A stretch of DNA of 64,000 bases. Source: Klebsiella terrigena. GTDB lineage: Bacteria; Pseudomonadota; Gammaproteobacteria; Enterobacterales; Enterobacteriaceae. Both the position numbers and the translations under genes were made by a program. The stretch spans positions 496,001 through 560,000 of the forward strand of contig NZ_BJNO01000001.1 in NCBI RefSeq assembly GCF_006539725.1, read 5' to 3'. Of the stretch, positions 44 through 8,527 are shown piece after piece. Under the pieces are notes generated by a model. That model was not told the DNA's origin, searched no databases, and saw only the letters and a list, made by a program, of their open reading frames with translations. Each line of letters begins with the position of its first letter. The first letter of the stretch is position 1.

Positions 44-229
44 TTAGCTGCCGTCAGATTTACGGCCGCCGCCGTGGCTATTTTGCCCGCCTTTCTTACC
101 GGCTTCGGAAGCACGCTCTGGGTCATTTTTAAAATTCCCCCCGCTGTGCTGGCCGCCTTTGCGACCGGCTTCAGATGCTTTATCCCGATCTTCTGCAAAA
201 TTACCTGAACCGCCTCTGTGCTCTGTCAT
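44..229 (-). CDS. yciG: YciG-like KGG-repeat stress protein
   Basis: A 61-residue, very hydrophilic glycine-rich protein. Two copies of the KGG block are visible (EAGRKGGQHSGGNF near residues 20-33 and EAGKKGGQNS near 42-51), the hallmark of the KGG/con-10 general stress family that includes enterobacterial YciG. The start is supported by GGAG about nine bases upstream. It is an RpoS-type stationary-phase gene in relatives and affects swarming in E. coli; that part is family knowledge. It probably lacks a fixed fold. Confidence 0.85.
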   Translation of the reverse strand: MTEHRGGSGNFAEDRDKASEAGRKGGQHSGGNFKNDPERASEAGKKGGQNSHGGGRKSDGS

Positions 230-772
230 AATTTTATCTCCAGATGATTACTTAATAATGATTCAGACCTGCAAATCATCGCCTTCGAGATTTAAGGCTA
301 GGACACTGAGCGCGAGAGTCAAATTATTAATAATTTAACACCAGGCATAATAAAATATTTAAAGAAAAATAACGCAGCGGCAGCAAAAATTATTTTTAAG
401 CCAAGTAGCTATTAAGACTATAGAATAAACGAGACGGCCAGCGCCAGGCGCAAAAATATTTATGCTGCGGATTGCCCTTTGTAAAGAAATGCCGGAAATG
501 TAAATATAACGAAAAAAGACCCTGCGCGTAGAGTCAGCAGCAAAAAAATTCCGCCCTCCCCGCTACGCTTTGCCGCGTGTATGACCGCCGCCCGCTTCAG
601 CGATACCCGATACCCGATAACCGATACCCGCCATCTCAATCGACGCCCGTGCAGCGTTCGTCGCGAAGGCCTGCGTCACGCATAAAATATTGCCTCGCGA
701 TACACAATCTCATAGGCGATCCCCTGCCGTTAGCGATAAAATCGATCAACGCTTATACACCGGAATGACCCC
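230..772. other. Intergenic region, no gene supported
   Basis: About 540 bases between the leftward yciG-like gene and the rightward GNAT gene. The yciG side is AT-rich and should hold its promoter. A 63-codon open frame at 577-768 has no ribosome site and a low-complexity arginine/proline composition, so I do not call it. The notable item is a short tandem heptamer array at 601-628. Confidence 0.6.
601..628. repeat. Four-copy heptamer tandem repeat
   Basis: Direct repeats CGATACC, CGATACC, CGATAAC, CGATACC in tandem. The array is short and of a type prone to slippage. Its function is unknown; it lies about 145 bases upstream of the GNAT gene. Confidence 0.8.
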
Positions 773-1312
773 ATGAAATATACTGAATCTCCCCGGCTAA
801 TCATCCGATCTTTTCAGGATAATGACGCCGAGGATATGTTCGAATATTTGTCAAACCCGCGCGTAGCCTGTTTTATGGATCAAAAACTTCACTCCCTGGG
901 GGAGGCAGTTAGCGAAATTACGCGCCGGCAAAAAGAGGAACACGACTATGCCATCAGCCTGAAGGAAACCGGTGCGCTGATTGGCGAGCTTTTTGCGGAT
1001 AACAGCCGGGAACCGGCCCCTGATACATACGGCGTGGGTTGGCTGCTGAATAAAAAATATGAAGGTATGGGGTTCGCCCGCGAAGCGGCACAGGCGTTTT
1101 TCGACTACCTGTTTAATCATAAAAACGCCCGAAGAATATATGCCTATGTTGCTGATTATAATGAACCTTCACAAAATCTTTGCCGTCACCTCGGTATGCG
1201 CCTCGAAGGATGTTTTAAGGAGCACGTCTCTTTTATCACGGATAATGAAACCGTGGTCTACGAAAATACGCTGGTGTTTGCCGTCCTCGCCAAAGAGTGG
1301 CGCGATAAATAG
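773..1312 (+). CDS. GNAT N-acetyltransferase, RimJ/RimL type
   Basis: A 179-residue protein of the Acetyltransf_3 branch of the GNAT superfamily. It opens with TESPRLIIRSF, typical of this branch, and has the acetyl-CoA pyrophosphate-loop region around residues 95-110 (GMGFAREAAQAFFDYLF), then the ARRIYAYVADYNEPSQNLCRHLGMRLEG block that is the usual C-terminal signature (bound cofactor, then N-x-S). The substrate cannot be predicted; relatives acetylate protein N-termini, antibiotics or small amines. GGAATG lies just upstream of the ATG. It is followed 46 bases later by the sensor kinase, but nothing shows they are co-regulated. Confidence 0.88.
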   Translation: MKYTESPRLIIRSFQDNDAEDMFEYLSNPRVACFMDQKLHSLGEAVSEITRRQKEEHDYAISLKETGALIGELFADNSREPAPDTYGVGWLLNKKYEGMGFAREAAQAFFDYLFNHKNARRIYAYVADYNEPSQNLCRHLGMRLEGCFKEHVSFITDNETVVYENTLVFAVLAKEWRDK

Positions 1313-1358
1313 TTTGAGCTGATTCTAAAAAACTCCCTGCCACCAGGATCGAAGGTAC

Positions 1359-2870
1359 ATGATGTTACGCAGCAATACCCTGCTACGCCGGCTGCTGTTT
1401 ATATGGTTAAGCTTTGCGGCGGTCTCTATTACTTTAGGATGGCTTATCTTCGAACTCAGCCGTCAGGGGGCAGATGAGCAGATTCGACGCGAGCGCCAGC
1501 TCACCGCCGCCAGCTGTGAAACGCTGCGGATCGCGGCAACCCGCGCGGGTCTTAGCGCCGACTCCGGGAAGATAAATCTGAGCCCACAGTGGGTTTCCGG
1601 CGCGCAGGCGGTTATCGATCTCACGCTGAGAGACCGGCCCGGCGTCGAAGGCGGGCTGTGGAGCATGGGCTCGGGAGTCGTCGCCTACGCTTTCCCGACC
1701 TATGACGGCAGCGGCATCAAACGCGATCCGCCCAGCGCTGAACTGGAGCGAATTGAGTCCACCAGCCGTCGCGCCCTGGATGGGAAACGCTCCGTTACCG
1801 ACGTACGTCCCGGCCTGCGTGAGGCGGTCATTTTTTCCGCATGCCCGCTGGAGCAAAATTCGGCCCTGGTTGCCTGGACGCTATCCCGCGTGCCGACCAT
1901 AACGGGTGATGCCCTCGACCGGCTGGTGCTGGCGATGGCGCTTTTACTCGGTTTTGTCCTTTTATCCGGCAGCTGGCTGGGCTGGACGCTCACCCGCTGG
2001 TCCCGCGGCGTGCATTATCTGGCGGGAGTGCTGGAGCAATCCAGAACTCAGTTTGACTCCTCCGCGCCGGAGCTCGCCGAGCTGTCGGGATTAGCCGACC
2101 TCGATAGGGTTACGGTCGCGCTGAATGATTACTCGCAGCGGCTGGCCTACGCCCAGCGCGAATCCGCACGCTTGTCTGCCGAGCTGGCGCAGGCGGAAAA
2201 ACTCGCGGCGCTCGGCGAGCTTTCTGCCGGGCTGGCGCATGAAATTCGCAACCCGCTGGCGACCATTCAGATGAAGGCCGAAAACGCGCTGCATGCCCCG
2301 CAGGCGAGCCGCGTAGCGCGAGCCGAAAGTGCCCTGCTGGTGGTAATAGAACAAACGGAAAGGATCAACCGGCTCGTTTCCAGCCTGCTGGCATTGACGC
2401 AACCGTTTCGCGTTGAGCGGCAGAAAGTTAACATTGAAGAGTGGTTGCTGGAGAGAATAAACGCCCACGCGGATGCCGCCCAGCGGCGTCAGATTGAGCT
2501 AACGCTGACGATTGACCCTGAATTACCCGCCCACATGAATGACCGCAAACTCTTTGACCCGTCGCAAATGGCCCGGGCGTTCGATAATCTGATATTAAAC
2601 GCGCTGGCGCATGTCGCGAACGGCGGTCGGATTGAGACAGGCGCAAGGCGCCGCGCCAATGGCAACCTGCTATTGTGGGTTGCCGATGATGGCCCGGGCG
2701 TGTCTGATGAGCTGCGCGCCCGGCTGTTTAACCCTTTTATCACCGGCCGCCCGGACGGTTACGGGCTCGGTTTGGCGTTGGTACGTGAAATAGTCCATGC
2801 CCACGGCGGCAATATTTCGCTGGCAGATAGCGCGCGTTTTGAGATGGAGCTGACATGGCCAGAGTGCTGA
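1359..2870 (+). CDS. Membrane sensor histidine kinase (NtrB/ZraS type)
   Basis: A 503-residue sensor kinase. One membrane segment lies near residues 10-31 and a second near 188-211, enclosing a periplasmic sensor region of about 155 residues. A HAMP-like linker follows, then the dimerisation/phosphoacceptor helix with the H-box GLAHEIRNPL (His294). The ATP-binding domain shows N-box (NLILNAL), G1 (ADDGPGVSD) and G2 (GYGLGLALV). The stop overlaps the start of the response regulator by 16 bases, so the pair is translationally coupled. The architecture matches kinases that partner NtrC-like regulators. The ligand is unknown; the downstream export operon suggests it senses an extracytoplasmic toxic ion or compound, which is inference. 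Confidence 0.93.
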   Translation: MMLRSNTLLRRLLFIWLSFAAVSITLGWLIFELSRQGADEQIRRERQLTAASCETLRIAATRAGLSADSGKINLSPQWVSGAQAVIDLTLRDRPGVEGGLWSMGSGVVAYAFPTYDGSGIKRDPPSAELERIESTSRRALDGKRSVTDVRPGLREAVIFSACPLEQNSALVAWTLSRVPTITGDALDRLVLAMALLLGFVLLSGSWLGWTLTRWSRGVHYLAGVLEQSRTQFDSSAPELAELSGLADLDRVTVALNDYSQRLAYAQRESARLSAELAQAEKLAALGELSAGLAHEIRNPLATIQMKAENALHAPQASRVARAESALLVVIEQTERINRLVSSLLALTQPFRVERQKVNIEEWLLERINAHADAAQRRQIELTLTIDPELPAHMNDRKLFDPSQMARAFDNLILNALAHVANGGRIETGARRRANGNLLLWVADDGPGVSDELRARLFNPFITGRPDGYGLGLALVREIVHAHGGNISLADSARFEMELTWPEC

Positions 2871-4201
2871 TTGTTGATGATGATAGCGCGTTTCGCGCCA
2901 GCCTGGTCGAGGCATTAAGCGACTTAAATCATCAGGCGATCGAAGCCGACTGTACGTTGGCAGGGATGCAGCAGCTTCGCACAGGCGATATCGACATCGC
3001 CATTGTGGATCTGCGCATGCCTGGCGATGATGGGCTGGTTTTTTTGCGCCAGGCCCGGGCGCTCGCCCCCGACATCCCCTGCATCATGCTCACCGCCTAC
3101 GCCAGCAGCGGCAATACCATTGAAGCCATGCGGATGGGCGCTTTTGATCACCTGACAAAACCCATCGGGCGCGCGGCGCTTGAAGAGGTGCTGACGCGCG
3201 CGCTGGATCGCATTGCAGAAAATCAGCATGGTTCAGGCAGCACCGCCGACGATATGCCCCTGGCTGACGACGATCTGGTTGGCAGCAGCGAAGCGATGCG
3301 CCAGATTTTTAAACGTATAGGCCAGGTGGCTAATAGCGATGCCACGGTGCTGATTAGCGGCGAGACGGGAACCGGGAAAGAGCTGGTGGCTCGCGAGATA
3401 CACCGTAGCGGGCCGTGCGCTAGCGGCCCTTTTATCGCGGTCAACTGCGCGGCAATCCCGGCAGAGCTGATTGAGAGTGAGCTGTTCGGTCATGTGAAAG
3501 GGGCATTTTCCGGCGCCGTGGCGGACCGTCCTGGTCAGTTCCGCGCCGCTCAAGGAGGAACCCTCTTTTTAGACGAAATTGGCGATATGCCGCTCCCGGT
3601 GCAGGCGAAAATTTTACGCGCTTTGCAGGAGCGGCAGGTTACGCCGGTCGGCGGAACGCATGCTCATCCGGTAAAGGTACGCATCATCGCAGCCACCCAT
3701 CACGACCTGCCGCTGGCGGTACAGGAGGGGCGCTTTCGCGAAGACCTGTGGTATCGATTACAGGTCATCACTATCGTCCTGCCCCCGCTGCGGGAAAGGT
3801 CGGGAGACGTGATTCTGCTGGCGGAGCATTTTTTACGCCAGTCGGAGAGCCATCCGCCAAAGCGTCTTTCCCAGCAGGCCTGCCAGGCGCTGCTGGCGCA
3901 TATCTGGCCGGGGAACGTGCGTGAACTGCAGAATGCCATCAAAAGGGCTTCGGTGCTAAGCCAGGGGCCGACGGTTGGCCCCGAGCAATTAGGATTAGGG
4001 CTACGGACGCCTCAGGCCGCCGATGCCGCTCCGCAGCTGAACTGGGACGGAACCCTGCAGGAAGCCCTCGCCGTTATTGAACGGCAGATGATTATGCGAG
4101 CCCTGGCGGCCACCGATAATAATCGGGCCCATGCCGCGCGTCGGCTCGGCCTCTCGCGCCAGCAGCTTTATCGTAAGCTTGAGCAGTTAGACATTAAATA
4201 A
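2855..4201 (+). CDS. Sigma-54-dependent response regulator (NtrC family)
   Basis: A 448-residue enhancer-binding protein. The receiver domain is at residues 1-115 with the acidic pair D8-D9, phosphoacceptor D52 (VDLRMPG) and K102 (TKP). The AAA+ domain spans about 140-370 with Walker A GETGTGKE (169-176), Walker B TLFLDE (236-241) and the sigma-54 contact loop, which reads GAFSGA (216-221) instead of the usual GAFTGA. The C terminus is a Fis-type helix-turn-helix (AARRLGLSRQQLYRKL). It is coupled to the kinase and lies immediately upstream of a near-perfect -24/-12 promoter, so that promoter is its obvious target. Confidence 0.95.
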   Translation: MARVLIVDDDSAFRASLVEALSDLNHQAIEADCTLAGMQQLRTGDIDIAIVDLRMPGDDGLVFLRQARALAPDIPCIMLTAYASSGNTIEAMRMGAFDHLTKPIGRAALEEVLTRALDRIAENQHGSGSTADDMPLADDDLVGSSEAMRQIFKRIGQVANSDATVLISGETGTGKELVAREIHRSGPCASGPFIAVNCAAIPAELIESELFGHVKGAFSGAVADRPGQFRAAQGGTLFLDEIGDMPLPVQAKILRALQERQVTPVGGTHAHPVKVRIIAATHHDLPLAVQEGRFREDLWYRLQVITIVLPPLRERSGDVILLAEHFLRQSESHPPKRLSQQACQALLAHIWPGNVRELQNAIKRASVLSQGPTVGPEQLGLGLRTPQAADAAPQLNWDGTLQEALAVIERQMIMRALAATDNNRAHAARRLGLSRQQLYRKLEQLDIK

Positions 4202-4207
4202 CCAGGG

Positions 4208-4257
4208 TGTCCGTACGGCGGACAGCACGCTGTCACATTATCGGACACTTTGTGACA
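4208..4257 (+). promoter_or_regulatory. Candidate enhancer sites for the NtrC-type regulator
   Basis: Two inverted repeats sit between the regulator stop and the sigma-54 promoter: TGTCCG-N5-CGGACA at 4208-4224, and TGTCAC-N15-GTGACA at 4231-4257 with a further CGGACA at 4242-4247. The shared half-site resembles TGTC(C/A)(G/C). Their position about 70-115 bases upstream of the inferred transcription start is right for enhancer sites. Binding is inferred, not shown. Confidence 0.6.
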
Positions 4258-4297
4258 GATCCGCCCCGCATCGCGCCCGGTGGCGCGTTTTCTTAGC

Positions 4298-4313
4298 TGG
4301 CACGCTCTTTGCT
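4298..4313 (+). promoter_or_regulatory. Sigma-54 (-24/-12) promoter
   Basis: TGGCACGCTCTTTGCT matches the RpoN consensus TGGCAC-N5-TTGC(A/T) at every defined position, with GG and GC elements 12 bases apart. Transcription should begin near 4324-4326, about 25 bases before the start codon of the periplasmic protein. It lies directly after the gene for the NtrC-family activator. Confidence 0.9.
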
Positions 4314-4350
4314 CTTAGAGAAATCATTGCTGTATTTCTCGGGAGTTATT

Positions 4351-5019
4351 ATGAAATTGTCGTTGATTGTTATCACTCTGGCAGCGGCGTTGAGCGGGCT
4401 GACAGCGGCTATCGCTGAACCGCCCCCGGCCGCTCCTCTGCCTCCACTTTCGGCTACCCCGCCTTCGCAACAGCCGATCTCGGTCGCGGAAGGTAAGGTG
4501 CGGCGGTTGCTTATCAACCCCTTCGGTGAAGTCGATGGATTACAGCTGGAAAGCGGTGTTGTCGTCGCTTTCCCACCCCATATGGGCGCCAGGCTTGCCG
4601 CAGAAGCCGCGCCGGGTCAATCCGTGCGTATTAGCGGTTTTATGGAAACCGCAAAGCGGGTAAAAGCCGAAAGTATTATCAACGTCGCCACGGGGCAGGC
4701 CCTGGTCGATCGCCCCCCGACAGTCGAGGATGAGGGCATCCCCCCTCATTTGCGGGCGAATACGCTACAGCGCTTTGAAGTCTCGGGTTCTATCGATACC
4801 GTTCTGACCGGCCCTCGCGGTGAAATCAACGGCGCGATCCTCAATGATGGCAGCATCGTGCATTTTCCTCCCGGCTCGCTGCAGAGATCGCTGGAGGCGG
4901 GAATGCCGTTCGCCGCAGCAGGGCTTGGAACGCGTAATCAGTATGGGCAGGCGCTTGAGGCCGTGAGCGTCGGCGCCACCCTTTCCTCACTTCAGCCTCT
5001 CTATCGCGGAGAGCCTTAA
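4351..5019 (+). CDS. Periplasmic two-repeat protein of a sigma-54 operon
   Basis: I chose the ATG at 4351 (GGGAG seven bases upstream) because it gives a clean signal peptide, MKLSLIVITLAAALSGLTAA, and because the sigma-54 promoter overlaps any earlier start. The mature part begins with a proline-rich linker (about residues 23-42) followed by two homologous units, residues 47-112 and 141-208. Each has the pattern G-x-V/I ... P-x-GE(V/I)-x-G-x-x-L ... G-x-x-V-x-FPP ... G. These look like small beta-barrel/OB-like units, but I do not recognise the family. The gene is the first of a coupled operon with two exporters; a role as a periplasmic binding or sensing partner is a guess. TAATG overlap with the next gene. 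Confidence 0.75.
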   Translation: MKLSLIVITLAAALSGLTAAIAEPPPAAPLPPLSATPPSQQPISVAEGKVRRLLINPFGEVDGLQLESGVVVAFPPHMGARLAAEAAPGQSVRISGFMETAKRVKAESIINVATGQALVDRPPTVEDEGIPPHLRANTLQRFEVSGSIDTVLTGPRGEINGAILNDGSIVHFPPGSLQRSLEAGMPFAAAGLGTRNQYGQALEAVSVGATLSSLQPLYRGEP

Positions 5020-6269
5020 TGGAAACCGGCCCGTGGATTTGGCTGGTTGCCGGTAGCGCAACCGCGGCGGTGATACTGCGGCCGTTTCGTCTACCTGAGG
5101 CGATATGGGCAGCTTCAGGTGTCCTGATTTTACTGGTATTTCACCTTCTTCCCTTCGCCCAGGCGATGGCGGGGGTCCGCCGAGGAACCTCGGTGTACCT
5201 GTTCCTCGCGGGCATGATGCTGATGGCCGAGCTCGCCCGCCGGGAGCGCGTTTTTGACTGGTTAGCCGCGATGGCGGCGCGCCGGGCTGCCGGCTCCGGA
5301 CCTCGCCTATTCCTGCTGATATATGCGGTGGGAACGCTGGTGACCGTTTTCCTCTCCAACGACGCAACGGCCGTGGTGCTGACGCCGGCGGTGTTTGCCG
5401 TTACCCGAGCGGTTGGCGCCTCCCCGCTGCCCTATCTCTATATTTGCGCGTTCATTGCGAATGCGGCCAGCTTCGTGTTGCCGGCCTCCAATCCGGCCAA
5501 TCTGGTAGTATTCGGTACCTCGATGCCGCCATTGTCCCGCTGGTTCGCCCTGTTTGCGCTGCCTTCGCTGGTCGCCATTGTCGCGACCTATGCGCTATTG
5601 CGCTGGAGGCTGCGGGCCGACATTGCGCCACGCCTCCACAGCGACATCTCCCCCAGCCCTTTGAGCCGCAGCGGGCGGCTGGCCGTGGTCGGTTTGGTTG
5701 GTGCGGCCGTGATTTTAACCGCCTGCGCCTGGAACGCCATCGACCTCGGTATGCCCACGCTGATGATTGCTCTGCTAACGCTGCTCCTGGTTTGGTTCCG
5801 CCGCGGGCAATCGCCGCTCAGCGTGGTTAAAGCCGTCTCGTGGAGCGTTATTCCACTGGTTGCCGCCCTGTTTGTCTTCGTGCAGGCGCTGGAGTATAGC
5901 GGCGCGATCGGCCCTCTCTCTGATGCCTTAACGCGGGTGACCACGCGCTGGCCGCAGGCTTCGGGGCTGATGGTTGGCGGCGCGCTGTCTTTGGTCAGTA
6001 ACCTTGCGAATAACCTTCCGGTAGGGCTGCTGGCCGGATCGGTCCTGCAATCTGCGACGCCTGCGCCGGCGATCTCTGCCGCCGCGCTGATCGGCGTTGC
6101 GCTCGGCCCTAATCTTTCCGTTACCGGCTCGCTGGCGACCATTCTGTGGCTCAATGCCCTACGCCGGGAGGGGCTGCACGTCGGCGTGGGGCAGTTTTTC
6201 AAACTGGGGCTGCTGGTGATGCCGCCAACGCTGCTGCTTGCTCTTTTCGTTCTGCATGGAATCGCATAA
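5019..6269 (+). CDS. ArsB/NhaD-like ion transporter
   Basis: A 416-residue polytopic membrane protein with about 10-12 hydrophobic segments. It carries the paired re-entrant motifs of the ArsB/NhaD/CitM ion transporter superfamily: LSNDATAVVLTPAVFAV near residue 110 and SLVSNLANNLPVGLLAG near residue 327. Members move arsenite, dicarboxylates, or sodium/protons. There is no arsR or arsC nearby, so arsenite is not assured. The start codon overlaps the stop of the periplasmic gene (TAATG), and its own stop overlaps the MFS start in the same way, so the three genes must be one transcript driven by the sigma-54 promoter. Confidence 0.85.
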   Translation: METGPWIWLVAGSATAAVILRPFRLPEAIWAASGVLILLVFHLLPFAQAMAGVRRGTSVYLFLAGMMLMAELARRERVFDWLAAMAARRAAGSGPRLFLLIYAVGTLVTVFLSNDATAVVLTPAVFAVTRAVGASPLPYLYICAFIANAASFVLPASNPANLVVFGTSMPPLSRWFALFALPSLVAIVATYALLRWRLRADIAPRLHSDISPSPLSRSGRLAVVGLVGAAVILTACAWNAIDLGMPTLMIALLTLLLVWFRRGQSPLSVVKAVSWSVIPLVAALFVFVQALEYSGAIGPLSDALTRVTTRWPQASGLMVGGALSLVSNLANNLPVGLLAGSVLQSATPAPAISAAALIGVALGPNLSVTGSLATILWLNALRREGLHVGVGQFFKLGLLVMPPTLLLALFVLHGIA

Positions 6270-7492
6270 TGTCTTTACTCAGCACTCTTCCTCTGCGTAC
6301 CCGAACGCTCGTTTCACTGGCGGTCCTTAACTTCTTTCTCGCCGACGCACGGGATGGACTTGGACCTTTTCTCGATGCCTGGCTTATCACCCAGGGCTGG
6401 ACGGCTTTTGAGCTGGGCTTACTGGCAACCACCGGCGGCGCTATCGGGCTGTTTGCCGGGGTTCCTGCCGGCGCGTGGGTCGATGCCGCCCGCGCCAAGC
6501 GCAGCCTACTAATTGTGCCGGTGTTGTTAACCACCCTGCTGGCTTTTGCCGCTATTTTATGGCCCAGTAAACCCGTGGTTTTTGTCTCCCAAATCTTAAC
6601 CGCGCTGGCAGGGTTGCTGATTGGCCCCACCATGGTGGCTATCTCGCTGGGCCTGGTCGGACGCAGCGGTTTCACTCAACAGGTGAGCTATAACGAAGCG
6701 TGGAACCACACCGGTAATATTGTGCTGCTGATGGCGACATGGTGGATCAGCAGTGAAGCCGGCTTGTCCGGCGTCGCAACGCTGATGACGATAACCGCCG
6801 TCGTCACCGTCCTGGCAACATTAACAATCAACCCCGATGACATCGACCATGAGGTGGCTCGCGGACAGGATGAAACGCCGGGCAACAGGCAACACAAGCC
6901 ACCCTCACGGCTACGGGTTCTGTGGTCCGATCGCGGGCTGCTGGTGTTTGCGCTAACGCTGATGCTGTTCCATTTCGCCAATGCGCCAATATCGCGTTTG
7001 CTGATCCAGCAAAATGCCATCAATCTGGATCAGCCCTTTAAAACCACGGCGATTATCATGCTGGTCGGCCAGGCCTCGGCCATTGTCGGGGCGCTGCTGG
7101 TGCCCGCCGCTATTCGCATATTTGGCCTGCGATATCTGGTGCTGTTCGCGCTGGCTACGCTACCGATACGCGGCGTGATTGCGGCACAGGCGCACGACTT
7201 CAATGCGATTTATCCCGTGCAAATTCTCGACGGCCTCGGGGCTGGCCTGCTCGGCATTTTGACACCGCTGGTGCTGGAAAAACTGCTGGCGGGGACGGGC
7301 CACTTTAACCTCGGATTTGCCAGCGTATTAACCGTGCAGGGCATTGGCGCGACCCTTAGCAGCGTCGTCGCCGGAGCCGTTGTTGAGAAGTGGGGCTACG
7401 GCCATGCCTTTCTGGTACACGGCCTCATTGCGCTATTGGCCATACTGCTGTTTGCCTTCGCGGGGCAACGCAAACCTGCGGCGAAACACTGA
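6269..7492 (+). CDS. MFS efflux transporter
   Basis: A 407-residue transporter of the major facilitator superfamily with 12 predicted membrane helices. The start at 6269 overlaps the previous stop and begins MSLLSTLPLRTRTLVSL. A longer in-frame reading upstream would run through the permease gene and is not credible. The first half has GAWVDAARAKRSLLI, the usual loop 2-3 arrangement. A charged cytoplasmic loop of about 30 residues separates the halves. It is the last gene of the sigma-54 export operon. The substrate is unknown. Confidence 0.88.
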   Translation: MSLLSTLPLRTRTLVSLAVLNFFLADARDGLGPFLDAWLITQGWTAFELGLLATTGGAIGLFAGVPAGAWVDAARAKRSLLIVPVLLTTLLAFAAILWPSKPVVFVSQILTALAGLLIGPTMVAISLGLVGRSGFTQQVSYNEAWNHTGNIVLLMATWWISSEAGLSGVATLMTITAVVTVLATLTINPDDIDHEVARGQDETPGNRQHKPPSRLRVLWSDRGLLVFALTLMLFHFANAPISRLLIQQNAINLDQPFKTTAIIMLVGQASAIVGALLVPAAIRIFGLRYLVLFALATLPIRGVIAAQAHDFNAIYPVQILDGLGAGLLGILTPLVLEKLLAGTGHFNLGFASVLTVQGIGATLSSVVAGAVVEKWGYGHAFLVHGLIALLAILLFAFAGQRKPAAKH

Positions 7493-7684
7493 ACCCGAGC
7501 ATCATTAATCTTTCAACAGACCGTGCCAGAACTGATGCAGATCAGCCATACCTTACGCGCCATGTGCTATCACATTACGCGGCTGGTGGCGTTATTTATC
7601 TGCTTTATTGCGCCTCATTCCAGCTGATTAAGCAACTTACATCGATATCTTAAAAATTTCCTGATACCAAGGACGATCCTATCC

Positions 7685-8353
7685 ATGAATAAGCGGCCGC
7701 TCTTCCTGCTGGCTCTCGTGTTACCCCTGAGCGCACAGGCCAACGTTTATTATATCAAAGCCGATACCGTCAAGAATACCAGCGTTAATGAGGCTGCCAT
7801 TTACTTCAACGGCGCGATCAATAACCGAACCGTCACCTGGTTATTATCCTCGCTTGCAGAAATAGCAGGCAGGTACCGCAATATCAAGAATATCGATATA
7901 TATCTCAACAGCGAAGGCGGAGATATGGACGCCGGGTACGTGGCCTATGAAGCGCTGCGCAAGAGTGCGATCAAACTGAATATGATCGATGCTTCAGTGA
8001 TAGCCTCAGCGGCAACCATGATTTACTGCGGATCGGATGAGCGTTACGCCATGCCGCTTGCCAGATTCATGCTTCATCCTGCCGCCGCGTGGAACGACAA
8101 AGCGGATTATCTGAAACCCGATCAGGCCAGGCGCATTCTGGAAGATGCTGAAAGCTACAACGTCCTGTTTCGCACTATTTATTCGACCTGCACAAAAATC
8201 TCCGCCGATGAACTGAATAAAATAACGGCCTCGGAAACCGGACGCGTATTTTATAAGGTCGATGAGGCAGCCAAAGCCGGCCTGGTCACTCGCGGTATCA
8301 AAGAGAGCCATAGCTATTCGGTAACCTACTATGTTACCGACGGCGATAGTTAA
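7685..8353 (+). CDS. Secreted ClpP/crotonase-fold protein
   Basis: A 222-residue protein with a signal peptide (MNKRPLFLLALVLPLSAQA). The mature part follows the ClpP/SppA fold: YLNSEGGDMDAGYVAYEALR corresponds to the ClpP oxyanion strand region, IASAATMIYCG to the nucleophile-elbow serine, and RFMLHPAAAW to the catalytic-histidine segment (ARIMIHQP in ClpP). The C-terminal part ends GRVFYKVDEAAKAGLV like the end of ClpP, but the aspartate position is not clearly kept. A ClpP-like protease with a signal peptide is uncommon; it could be a periplasmic peptidase or an inactive relative. It stands alone between convergent neighbours. Confidence 0.75.
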   Translation: MNKRPLFLLALVLPLSAQANVYYIKADTVKNTSVNEAAIYFNGAINNRTVTWLLSSLAEIAGRYRNIKNIDIYLNSEGGDMDAGYVAYEALRKSAIKLNMIDASVIASAATMIYCGSDERYAMPLARFMLHPAAAWNDKADYLKPDQARRILEDAESYNVLFRTIYSTCTKISADELNKITASETGRVFYKVDEAAKAGLVTRGIKESHSYSVTYYVTDGDS

Positions 8354-8527
8354 GATAGTCGTGCAGAGAATATTTCCATACGGTCCGTGGCAGACACAAT
8401 GACCTTAAAAGCCGGCACGAGCAGAACACGTTTAGCGCTAACGGTTCACTCGCCCCGGCTTATTATTGCGGGCGGGCGGAATAATAAGCCGGAAAAATAA
8501 CGTATTGTCACATCTGACTGACAAGCA

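What the first reader, a model, noticed from the sequence alone, without database searches (positions are those of the whole stretch)
1359..7492. NtrC-type two-component system driving a coupled periplasmic protein - ArsB/NhaD permease - MFS operon from a sigma-54 promoter
Seen: kinase and regulator overlap by 16 bases; immediately after them comes an exact TGGCAC-N5-TTGCT promoter with two upstream inverted repeats, then three genes joined by two TAATG overlaps. Known: sigma-54 activators with a membrane kinase often control envelope or metal responses (ZraSR-P is the closest analogue). Inference: a self-contained detoxification or ion-homeostasis module with an unassigned ligand. I do not recall this exact gene set being described.
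Basis: partly seen in the sequence, partly recalled or inferred. Interest (0 to 1): 0.75.

Follow-up and report, generated by a model that had tools for sequence, protein, structure and literature searches.

The report
Self-regulated two-exporter stress operon
A small gene set that carries its own sensor, its own switch and two predicted pumps recurs, with the same DNA control code, in many distantly related soil bacteria; it is probably a detoxification device, but what it pumps is unknown.

Summary
In detail: kinase and NtrC-type regulator overlapping by 16 bases, an exact sigma-54 site (4298-4313), then a periplasmic gene, an ArsB-like permease and an MFS gene joined by two TAATG overlaps. 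New here: the inverted repeats are two TGTC-N9-GACA enhancer-like sites (4208-4224, 4231-4247), a tandem found once in the 5.5-Mb genome. Of 59 comparable promoter regions, 54 carry TGTC-N9-GACA. The gene set recurs mainly in Burkholderiaceae: all five types in 29 of 72 loci, four in 47 of 72. The periplasmic gene is in 1 of 197 relatives searched, the own genome; the nearest relative examined keeps a deletion scar. The periplasmic protein belongs to an unnamed two-repeat family. The permease is not a true ArsB: polar pocket residues are kept, but Asp148 and Lys374 are Asn in 36 of 37 sequences each, and a separate ArsB-ArsC pair exists. Autonomous sigma-54 control is strongly supported by sequence; efflux of a toxic small molecule is inferred; signal and substrate are unknown.

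The parts
1359..2870 (+). Membrane histidine kinase, 503 aa: hydrophobic segments about 12-31 and 184-210, periplasmic sensor domain without a Pfam family over cut-off, conserved Cys53 and Cys162, then HisKA and HATPase_c
2855..4201 (+). NtrC-type response regulator, 448 aa: receiver, AAA+ sigma-54 domain, Fis-type HTH; GAFSGA in place of GAFTGA
4208..4224 (+). Enhancer-like site 1, TGTC-N9-GACA
4231..4247 (+). Enhancer-like site 2, TGTC-N9-GACA
4272..4287 (+). Terminator-like hairpin followed by TTTTC, may end the kinase-regulator transcript (weak)
4298..4313 (+). Sigma-54 (-24/-12) promoter-like site TGGCACGCTCTTTGCT
4351..5019 (+). OBp: predicted secreted periplasmic protein, 222 aa, signal peptide and Pro-rich linker by eye, two copies of an OB-like repeat; unnamed family
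5019..6269 (+). ArsB/CitMHS-superfamily permease, 416 aa; below the ArsB cut-offs of NCBIfam
6269..7492 (+). MFS transporter, 407 aa

Best explanation
A mobile, self-regulated envelope-stress and efflux module. The kinase detects a signal in the periplasm and phosphorylates the NtrC-type regulator (inferred from domain content). The regulator assembles on two tandem TGTC-N9-GACA sites and drives sigma-54 RNA polymerase at 4298-4313 (sites and their conservation shown; binding not shown). The induced transcript makes a secreted double-repeat protein that binds or buffers the compound in the periplasm (inferred), plus two inner-membrane transporters, an ArsB-like permease and an MFS protein, that remove the compound or a related one from the cell (inferred). 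The substrate is most likely a small neutral or weakly acidic hydroxylated molecule rather than arsenite (inferred from the permease pocket).
For: Of 72 loci fetched by the periplasmic protein, 56 have kinase and regulator, 54 MFS, 35 permease, 47 kinase+regulator+OB+MFS, 29 all five (presence anywhere in the fetched stretch at 50 bits or more, contig ends not corrected for). Of 60 regions following a related regulator (window and six plasmid loci searched for too), 59 have a sigma-54 site with at most 3 mismatches and 54 with at most 2, mostly 91-128 nt after the regulator's stop. TGTC-N9-GACA is in 54 of these 59, no other spacer from 4 to 15 occurs, and shuffles expect 0.055 regions. 48 of 59 have a pair (up to two mismatches a site), 44 of the 48 spaced 22 nt. 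The composite element occurs 76 times in the 72 loci (1.25 Mb, both strands); eight control palindromes of the same letters give 0 or 1 each. Of 8 loci with MFS or phosphoesterase genes divergent from the kinase, 6 carry the element on that strand (L002, L035, L039, L045, L046, L069; not L053, L065). In a Caballeronia pedi genome a separate phosphoesterase-MFS-permease-DMT stretch without this kinase or regulator has it, as do L023, L030, L057, L061 and L081, where about 10 kb upstream hold no such regulator.
Against: No expression, binding or phenotype data. 37 of 72 stretches show no permease, and the nearest relative lost the operon, so the cargo is dispensable. The window is atypical: no cytoplasmic OB paralogue (present in 54 of 72), permease before MFS (1 of 36 pairs), an MFS protein nearer to Shinella (53%) than to the next eleven best hits among the loci (36-39%), and GAFSGA in the regulator. 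Direction of transport cannot be read from sequence. No structure model was obtained. Loci are partly close relatives, so counts are not independent.
Confidence: 0.6

Rival explanations
1. An uptake system: a DctBD/AtoSC-like sigma-54 two-component system that induces import of an organic anion by the CitMHS-type permease, with the MFS protein as a second importer.
For: The kinase's best NCBIfam match is AtoS (161 bits, cut-off 646). The permease scores higher for CitMHS (126 bits) than for ArsB (82 bits), and a module permease (L003) reaches MatC_N just over cut-off (24.3 against 23).
Against: The SNT substrate motif of NaCT and VcINDY is replaced by Asn111 and Asn337 in ArsB (PMC13381914, passages), and this permease has those Asn residues and Ser380. 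No neighbour cluster is shared by more than 13 loci (an SDR, mechanical ORFs, 25 largest clusters printed).
Confidence: 0.2
2. An arsenite or antimonite resistance operon with an ArsB pump.
For: PF02040 match 82 bits (cut-off 22). The polar As(OH)3 pocket residues Asn111, Asp112, Asn158, Asn337, Ser380 and Ala382 are kept in 36 or 37 of 37 sequences.
Against: 134 bits against a cut-off of 457. The genome has a true ArsB (717 bits) with an ArsC match about 40 bases behind it on another contig. Asp148 is Asn in 36 of 37 and its partner Lys374 is Asn in 36 of 37; D148N and K374M impaired E. coli ArsB (PMC13381914, section 9 read). Pocket-lining residues differ too: Leu159 is Pro in 37 of 37, Val160 Ala in 35, Phe60 Tyr in 35. 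In the ten other genomes, no ArsC match lies within 50 kb of a permease match or enhancer tandem placed (one is on the same contig, about 150 kb off); the contig of the L017 and L021 modules was not placed.
Confidence: 0.1
3. A ZraP-like or SipA-like envelope chaperone system in which the periplasmic protein is the main product and the transporters are accessory.
For: The sigma-54 site lies between regulator and OB gene in 59 of 60 regions, and 37 of 72 stretches show no permease.
Against: Transporter genes carry the same control element when they lie elsewhere.
Confidence: 0.1

Closest known systems
ZraP-ZraSR (E. coli)
   Same: Membrane kinase, NtrC-type regulator, sigma-54 promoter, periplasmic target protein (recalled; only a search listing seen)
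   Different: Kinase 157 of 479 bits, regulator 350 of 760; here two transporters follow in the operon; ZraP itself was not compared
QseE-QseG-QseF (GlrKR)
   Same: Kinase, periplasmic partner, sigma-54 regulator; the QseF site TGTCN10GACA (passage of PMC8745638) has the same half-sites
   Different: Spacer 9 here, not 10; regulator 358 of 763 bits for GlrR; QseG is the third gene of the qseEGF operon and activates the kinase (abstract and passages of PMC6075780), whereas the protein here follows the sigma-54 site
ArsB arsenite/H+ antiporter
   Same: Same superfamily; polar metalloid-pocket residues kept
   Different: Asp148 and Lys374 each Asn in 36 of 37, hydrophobic pocket residues changed, below the NCBIfam cut-offs
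AioXSR arsenite-oxidation regulator
   Same: Kinase and regulator with a periplasmic protein (abstract starts in a listing; sigma-54 dependence recalled)
   Different: AioX is a periplasmic As(III) sensor for an arsenite oxidase; no oxidase is among these five genes. I did not search for AioX or the oxidase elsewhere
SipA/YgiW/YdeI bacterial OB-fold stress proteins
   Same: Periplasmic OB-type stress protein induced by a two-component system (passages of PMC6370654)
   Different: That family is not among the four Pfam families matched by the 61 OB members at E 0.01; two repeats here

Membership tests
Sigma-54 two-component system (NtrC class) | Kinase with HisKA/HATPase_c; regulator with receiver, sigma-54 AAA+ domain and HTH_8 | tested here: met
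Sigma-54 two-component system (NtrC class) | GAFTGA loop | tested here: inconclusive
   GAFSGA in the window; GAFTGA in 59 of 63 regulators, 3 not matched by the pattern
Sigma-54 two-component system (NtrC class) | -24/-12 promoter with upstream enhancer sites | tested here: met
   by sequence only
Sigma-54 two-component system (NtrC class) | RpoN-dependent transcription | not testable with these tools
   no expression data
ArsB | NCBIfam score (cut-off 457 bits) | tested here: not met
   134 bits; the genome's true ArsB scores 717
ArsB | Polar As(OH)3 pocket residues | tested here: met
   against PMC13381914
ArsB | Proposed proton-coupling Asp148 and its partner Lys374 | tested here: not met
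   Asn at each in 36 of 37; Asp370 is Ala in the window, Asp in 34 of 37
ZraSR | NCBIfam cut-offs | tested here: not met
QseF/GlrR | NCBIfam GlrR cut-off and TGTCN10GACA site | tested here: not met
   358 of 763 bits; spacer 10 in 0 of 59, spacer 9 in 54 of 59
DUF5666 / OB-fold | Pfam match | tested here: inconclusive
   At E 0.01: DUF5666 in 22 of 61 members, Cuticle_1 in 20, OB tRNA_anti-codon in 4, Acyltransf_2 in 3, none for the window protein; the two L003 members seen with cut-offs were below them

The most novel reading that the evidence does not exclude
An undescribed mobile defence module against a specific toxic small molecule of soil or host, in which a new family of duplicated OB-like proteins works on both sides of the inner membrane (OBp in the periplasm, OBc in the cytoplasm) as capture proteins for two exporters, one of them an ArsB-derived permease that lost the proposed proton-coupling ion pair but kept the polar neutral-hydroxide pocket; in the window the module has adapted to a new host by dropping OBc and exchanging its MFS gene.
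Probability: 0.2. Interest if true: 0.75.

Novelty: new variant of a known kind. Interest (0 to 1): 0.5.

Why it matters
It turns one guess about one genome into a defined, recurring module with a readable control code, so its target operons can be proposed from sequence. It points to an unclassified protein family with a periplasmic and a cytoplasmic form, and to a permease group that separates the ArsB polar pocket from its proposed proton-coupling pair, which makes a question about ArsB mechanism testable by comparison. If the signal is found, the kinase-promoter pair is a ready biosensor.

Tried and rejected
Chance grouping: rejected. Recent acquisition by this strain alone: rejected, since the nearest relative examined (G008) keeps the last ~55 codons of the MFS gene in decayed form next to the upstream flank. 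I first read the synteny break at 8509 as the edge of the insertion; searches corrected this. Arsenic operon: lowered. Function from neighbours: no cluster in more than 13 loci, and two homologous MFS loci gave no clue. Solved-structure searches by sequence gave only doubtful hits for the periplasmic family (designed trefoils, best E 3e-4 with no stretch passing on its own, and HU homologues at E 0.12), one doubtful hit for the sensor (E 0.91) and none for the MFS. The regulator tree left the window on a long branch without a firm sister. Literature: one search listed 11 papers, one search found none, searches printed the top 8 and 10 of 5,241 and 190; no title or abstract start described this gene set.

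Weak points of my counts: loci were found by the periplasmic protein, so its presence in all 72 is by construction; gene starts are mechanical; contig ends cut some loci; gene types were assigned by best match to a few reference proteins; some loci are near-identical relatives. The 76 composite elements include overlapping or doubtful sites beside kinase genes and one unrelated site at L036:19294. In one search, 5 of 11 genomes or records had no exact tandem, their sites having mismatches or other spacing.
Full report
What is there. The kinase has two hydrophobic segments around a periplasmic domain of about 150 residues for which Pfam gave only weak hits in single members (the window's own, CcmD, is below cut-off). 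Cys53 and Cys162 are each Cys in 59 of 60 kinases aligned; the exception at both is a Verrucomicrobiota MAG. The regulator has the full NtrC-class layout.

The control region. Upstream of the exact sigma-54 site (4298-4313) lie two 17-bp sites TGTC-N9-GACA at 4208-4224 and 4231-4247. The exact tandem is found at one place in the genome; the reversed control pattern gives none. I compared 60 regions that follow a related regulator with a related OB gene downstream, the window and six plasmid loci considered as well as the fetched loci: 59 have a sigma-54 site with at most 3 mismatches, 54 with at most 2. Of the 59, 54 carry TGTC-N9-GACA while no other spacer from 4 to 15 occurs; shuffled regions give 0.055. 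With up to two mismatches a site, 48 of 59 have a pair; 44 of the 48 are 22 nt apart (the window 23), and in 44 of the 48 the second site is centred 60-62 nt before the -24 box (the window 59). Six Burkholderia loci instead show sites 32 nt apart; the remaining regions have one site or none by this test. Both spacings are close to whole turns of DNA (inference). Over the 72 loci (1.25 Mb) the composite element occurs 76 times against 0 or 1 for each of eight control palindromes. QseF of enterobacteria uses TGTCN10GACA (passage of PMC8745638); the one-base difference could keep the guest circuit apart from the host's own (inference).

The code follows the cargo. In 8 loci the MFS, phosphoesterase or permease genes run the other way from the kinase. 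In 6 of the 8 that strand has its own sigma-54 site and site pair: with exact pairs in L039 and L045, with mismatches in L002, L035, L046 and L069; L053 and L065 gave none. In the genome of Caballeronia pedi a second 16-kb stretch without this kinase or regulator, coding phosphoesterase-MFS-permease-DMT and an OB gene, has the element. Five loci whose 10 kb upstream of the OB gene show no such regulator (L023, L030, L057, L061, L081) have it too. In ten genomes and one plasmid behind other loci, the exact tandem pattern occurred at 7 places in 6 of 11, each within about 6 kb of a permease match.

Conservation. The periplasmic gene is missing from close relatives (1 of 197, the own genome; 1 of 369 in a class-wide sample, again the own genome; 9 of 398 phylum-wide with a wider profile, own genome included). 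It is common in Burkholderiaceae: 72 loci from one scan, most of them Caballeronia, Paraburkholderia or Burkholderia, plus 20 plasmid records of 72,556. Of the 72 loci, 56 have kinase and regulator, 54 MFS, 54 the cytoplasmic paralogue, 35 the permease or its CitMHS-type relative, 15 a metallophosphoesterase, 9 a YdcZ-type DMT protein, 47 kinase+regulator+OB+MFS, and 29 all five types of the window. Outliers include Frateuria, Noviherbaspirillum, Xylophilus, Nitrosospira and a Verrucomicrobiota MAG; four Planctomycetales MAG loci show the OB gene alone. Plasmids of Bradyrhizobium and Methylocystis have the set with a more distant anion transporter (26% identity for Bradyrhizobium).

History in this lineage. 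In the nearest relative examined (G008, 83-91% DNA identity around the operon), window 621-1360 and window 7326-8388 are adjacent, so about 5.96 kb from the kinase start codon to some 55 codons before the MFS stop is missing, and a decayed, frameshifted remnant of those codons remains. I infer that the operon was present in the common ancestor and was deleted in that relative, and that the lineage acquired it earlier, because none of the other 19 genus genomes searched carries the periplasmic gene. The window's version differs from the rest: no cytoplasmic paralogue, permease before MFS (1 of 36 pairs), an MFS protein 53% identical to that of Shinella but 36-39% to the next eleven best hits among the loci.

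The proteins. OBp and OBc share two copies of a ~70-residue repeat with the motif NP-G-(E/D)-(V/I)-DG...FPPH; the two halves of the family match each other with 99.1% probability, E 2e-18. Weak Pfam hits (DUF5666 in 22 of 61 members, Cuticle_1 in 20, OB tRNA_anti-codon in 4, Acyltransf_2 in 3) leave an OB-like fold as a suggestion, which I could not test because no structure model could be obtained. The permease aligns with a solved ArsB. In 37 module-type sequences (window included) the polar residues reported to hold As(OH)3 (PMC13381914: abstract, passages and section 9 read) are kept in 36 or 37; Asp148 is Asn in 36 of 37 and Lys374 is Asn in 36 of 37, and Leu159, Val160 and Phe60 of the pocket are Pro in 37, Ala in 35 and Tyr in 35. 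The genome's true ArsB (717 bits) sits beside an ArsC elsewhere. The group looks like a sister of ArsB rather than ArsB.

Reading. Autonomous sigma-54 control of the downstream operon is as well supported as sequence allows. That the cargo exports a toxic compound is the best guess: an ArsB-type permease, an MFS protein and a periplasmic protein, with no recurring catabolic partner among the neighbour clusters printed. Import of an organic anion remains the main rival. Nothing here identifies the signal or the substrate.

Noticed in passing
window 8388-8509 against L140: The nearest relative has about 14 kb of other DNA here; by my reading of its ORFs, without a family search, two two-component systems, RND efflux genes and a MipA-like gene. 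The spot beside the MocR-type gene is variable.
   Followed up: partly
window 7685-8353: Predicted secreted ClpP-like serine protease (PF00574) just after the operon, shared with the nearest relative.
   Followed up: no
window 44-295: A short stretch with matches in 19 of 20 genus genomes, often in several copies; on the reverse strand it looks like a KGG-type stress protein gene (recalled name, no family search).
   Followed up: no
window 2855-4201 and 5019-6269: The regulator reads GAFSGA where 59 of 63 aligned regulators read GAFTGA; the permease has Ala where 34 of 37 keep the residue of ArsB Asp370.
   Followed up: partly
L110, L111, L112: Three small (2.0-2.5 Mb) genomes of one genus outside the class carry an OB-family gene with no other module gene in the 15-kb stretches taken.
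   Followed up: no
L030:13531-14178; also L005, L021, L023, L029, L081: A membrane protein like the CHASE3-only protein of L030 lies beside the module in 6 loci (Pfam checked for L030 only).
   Followed up: no
L008:4953-7492: Shinella carries an MFS-permease pair related to the window's (53% and 51%) between PAS-domain and HWE kinase genes, with no regulator or OB gene of this type in the 11-kb stretch.
   Followed up: partly
L036:19294: A composite enhancer-promoter element away from any recognised module gene, possibly chance.
   Followed up: no
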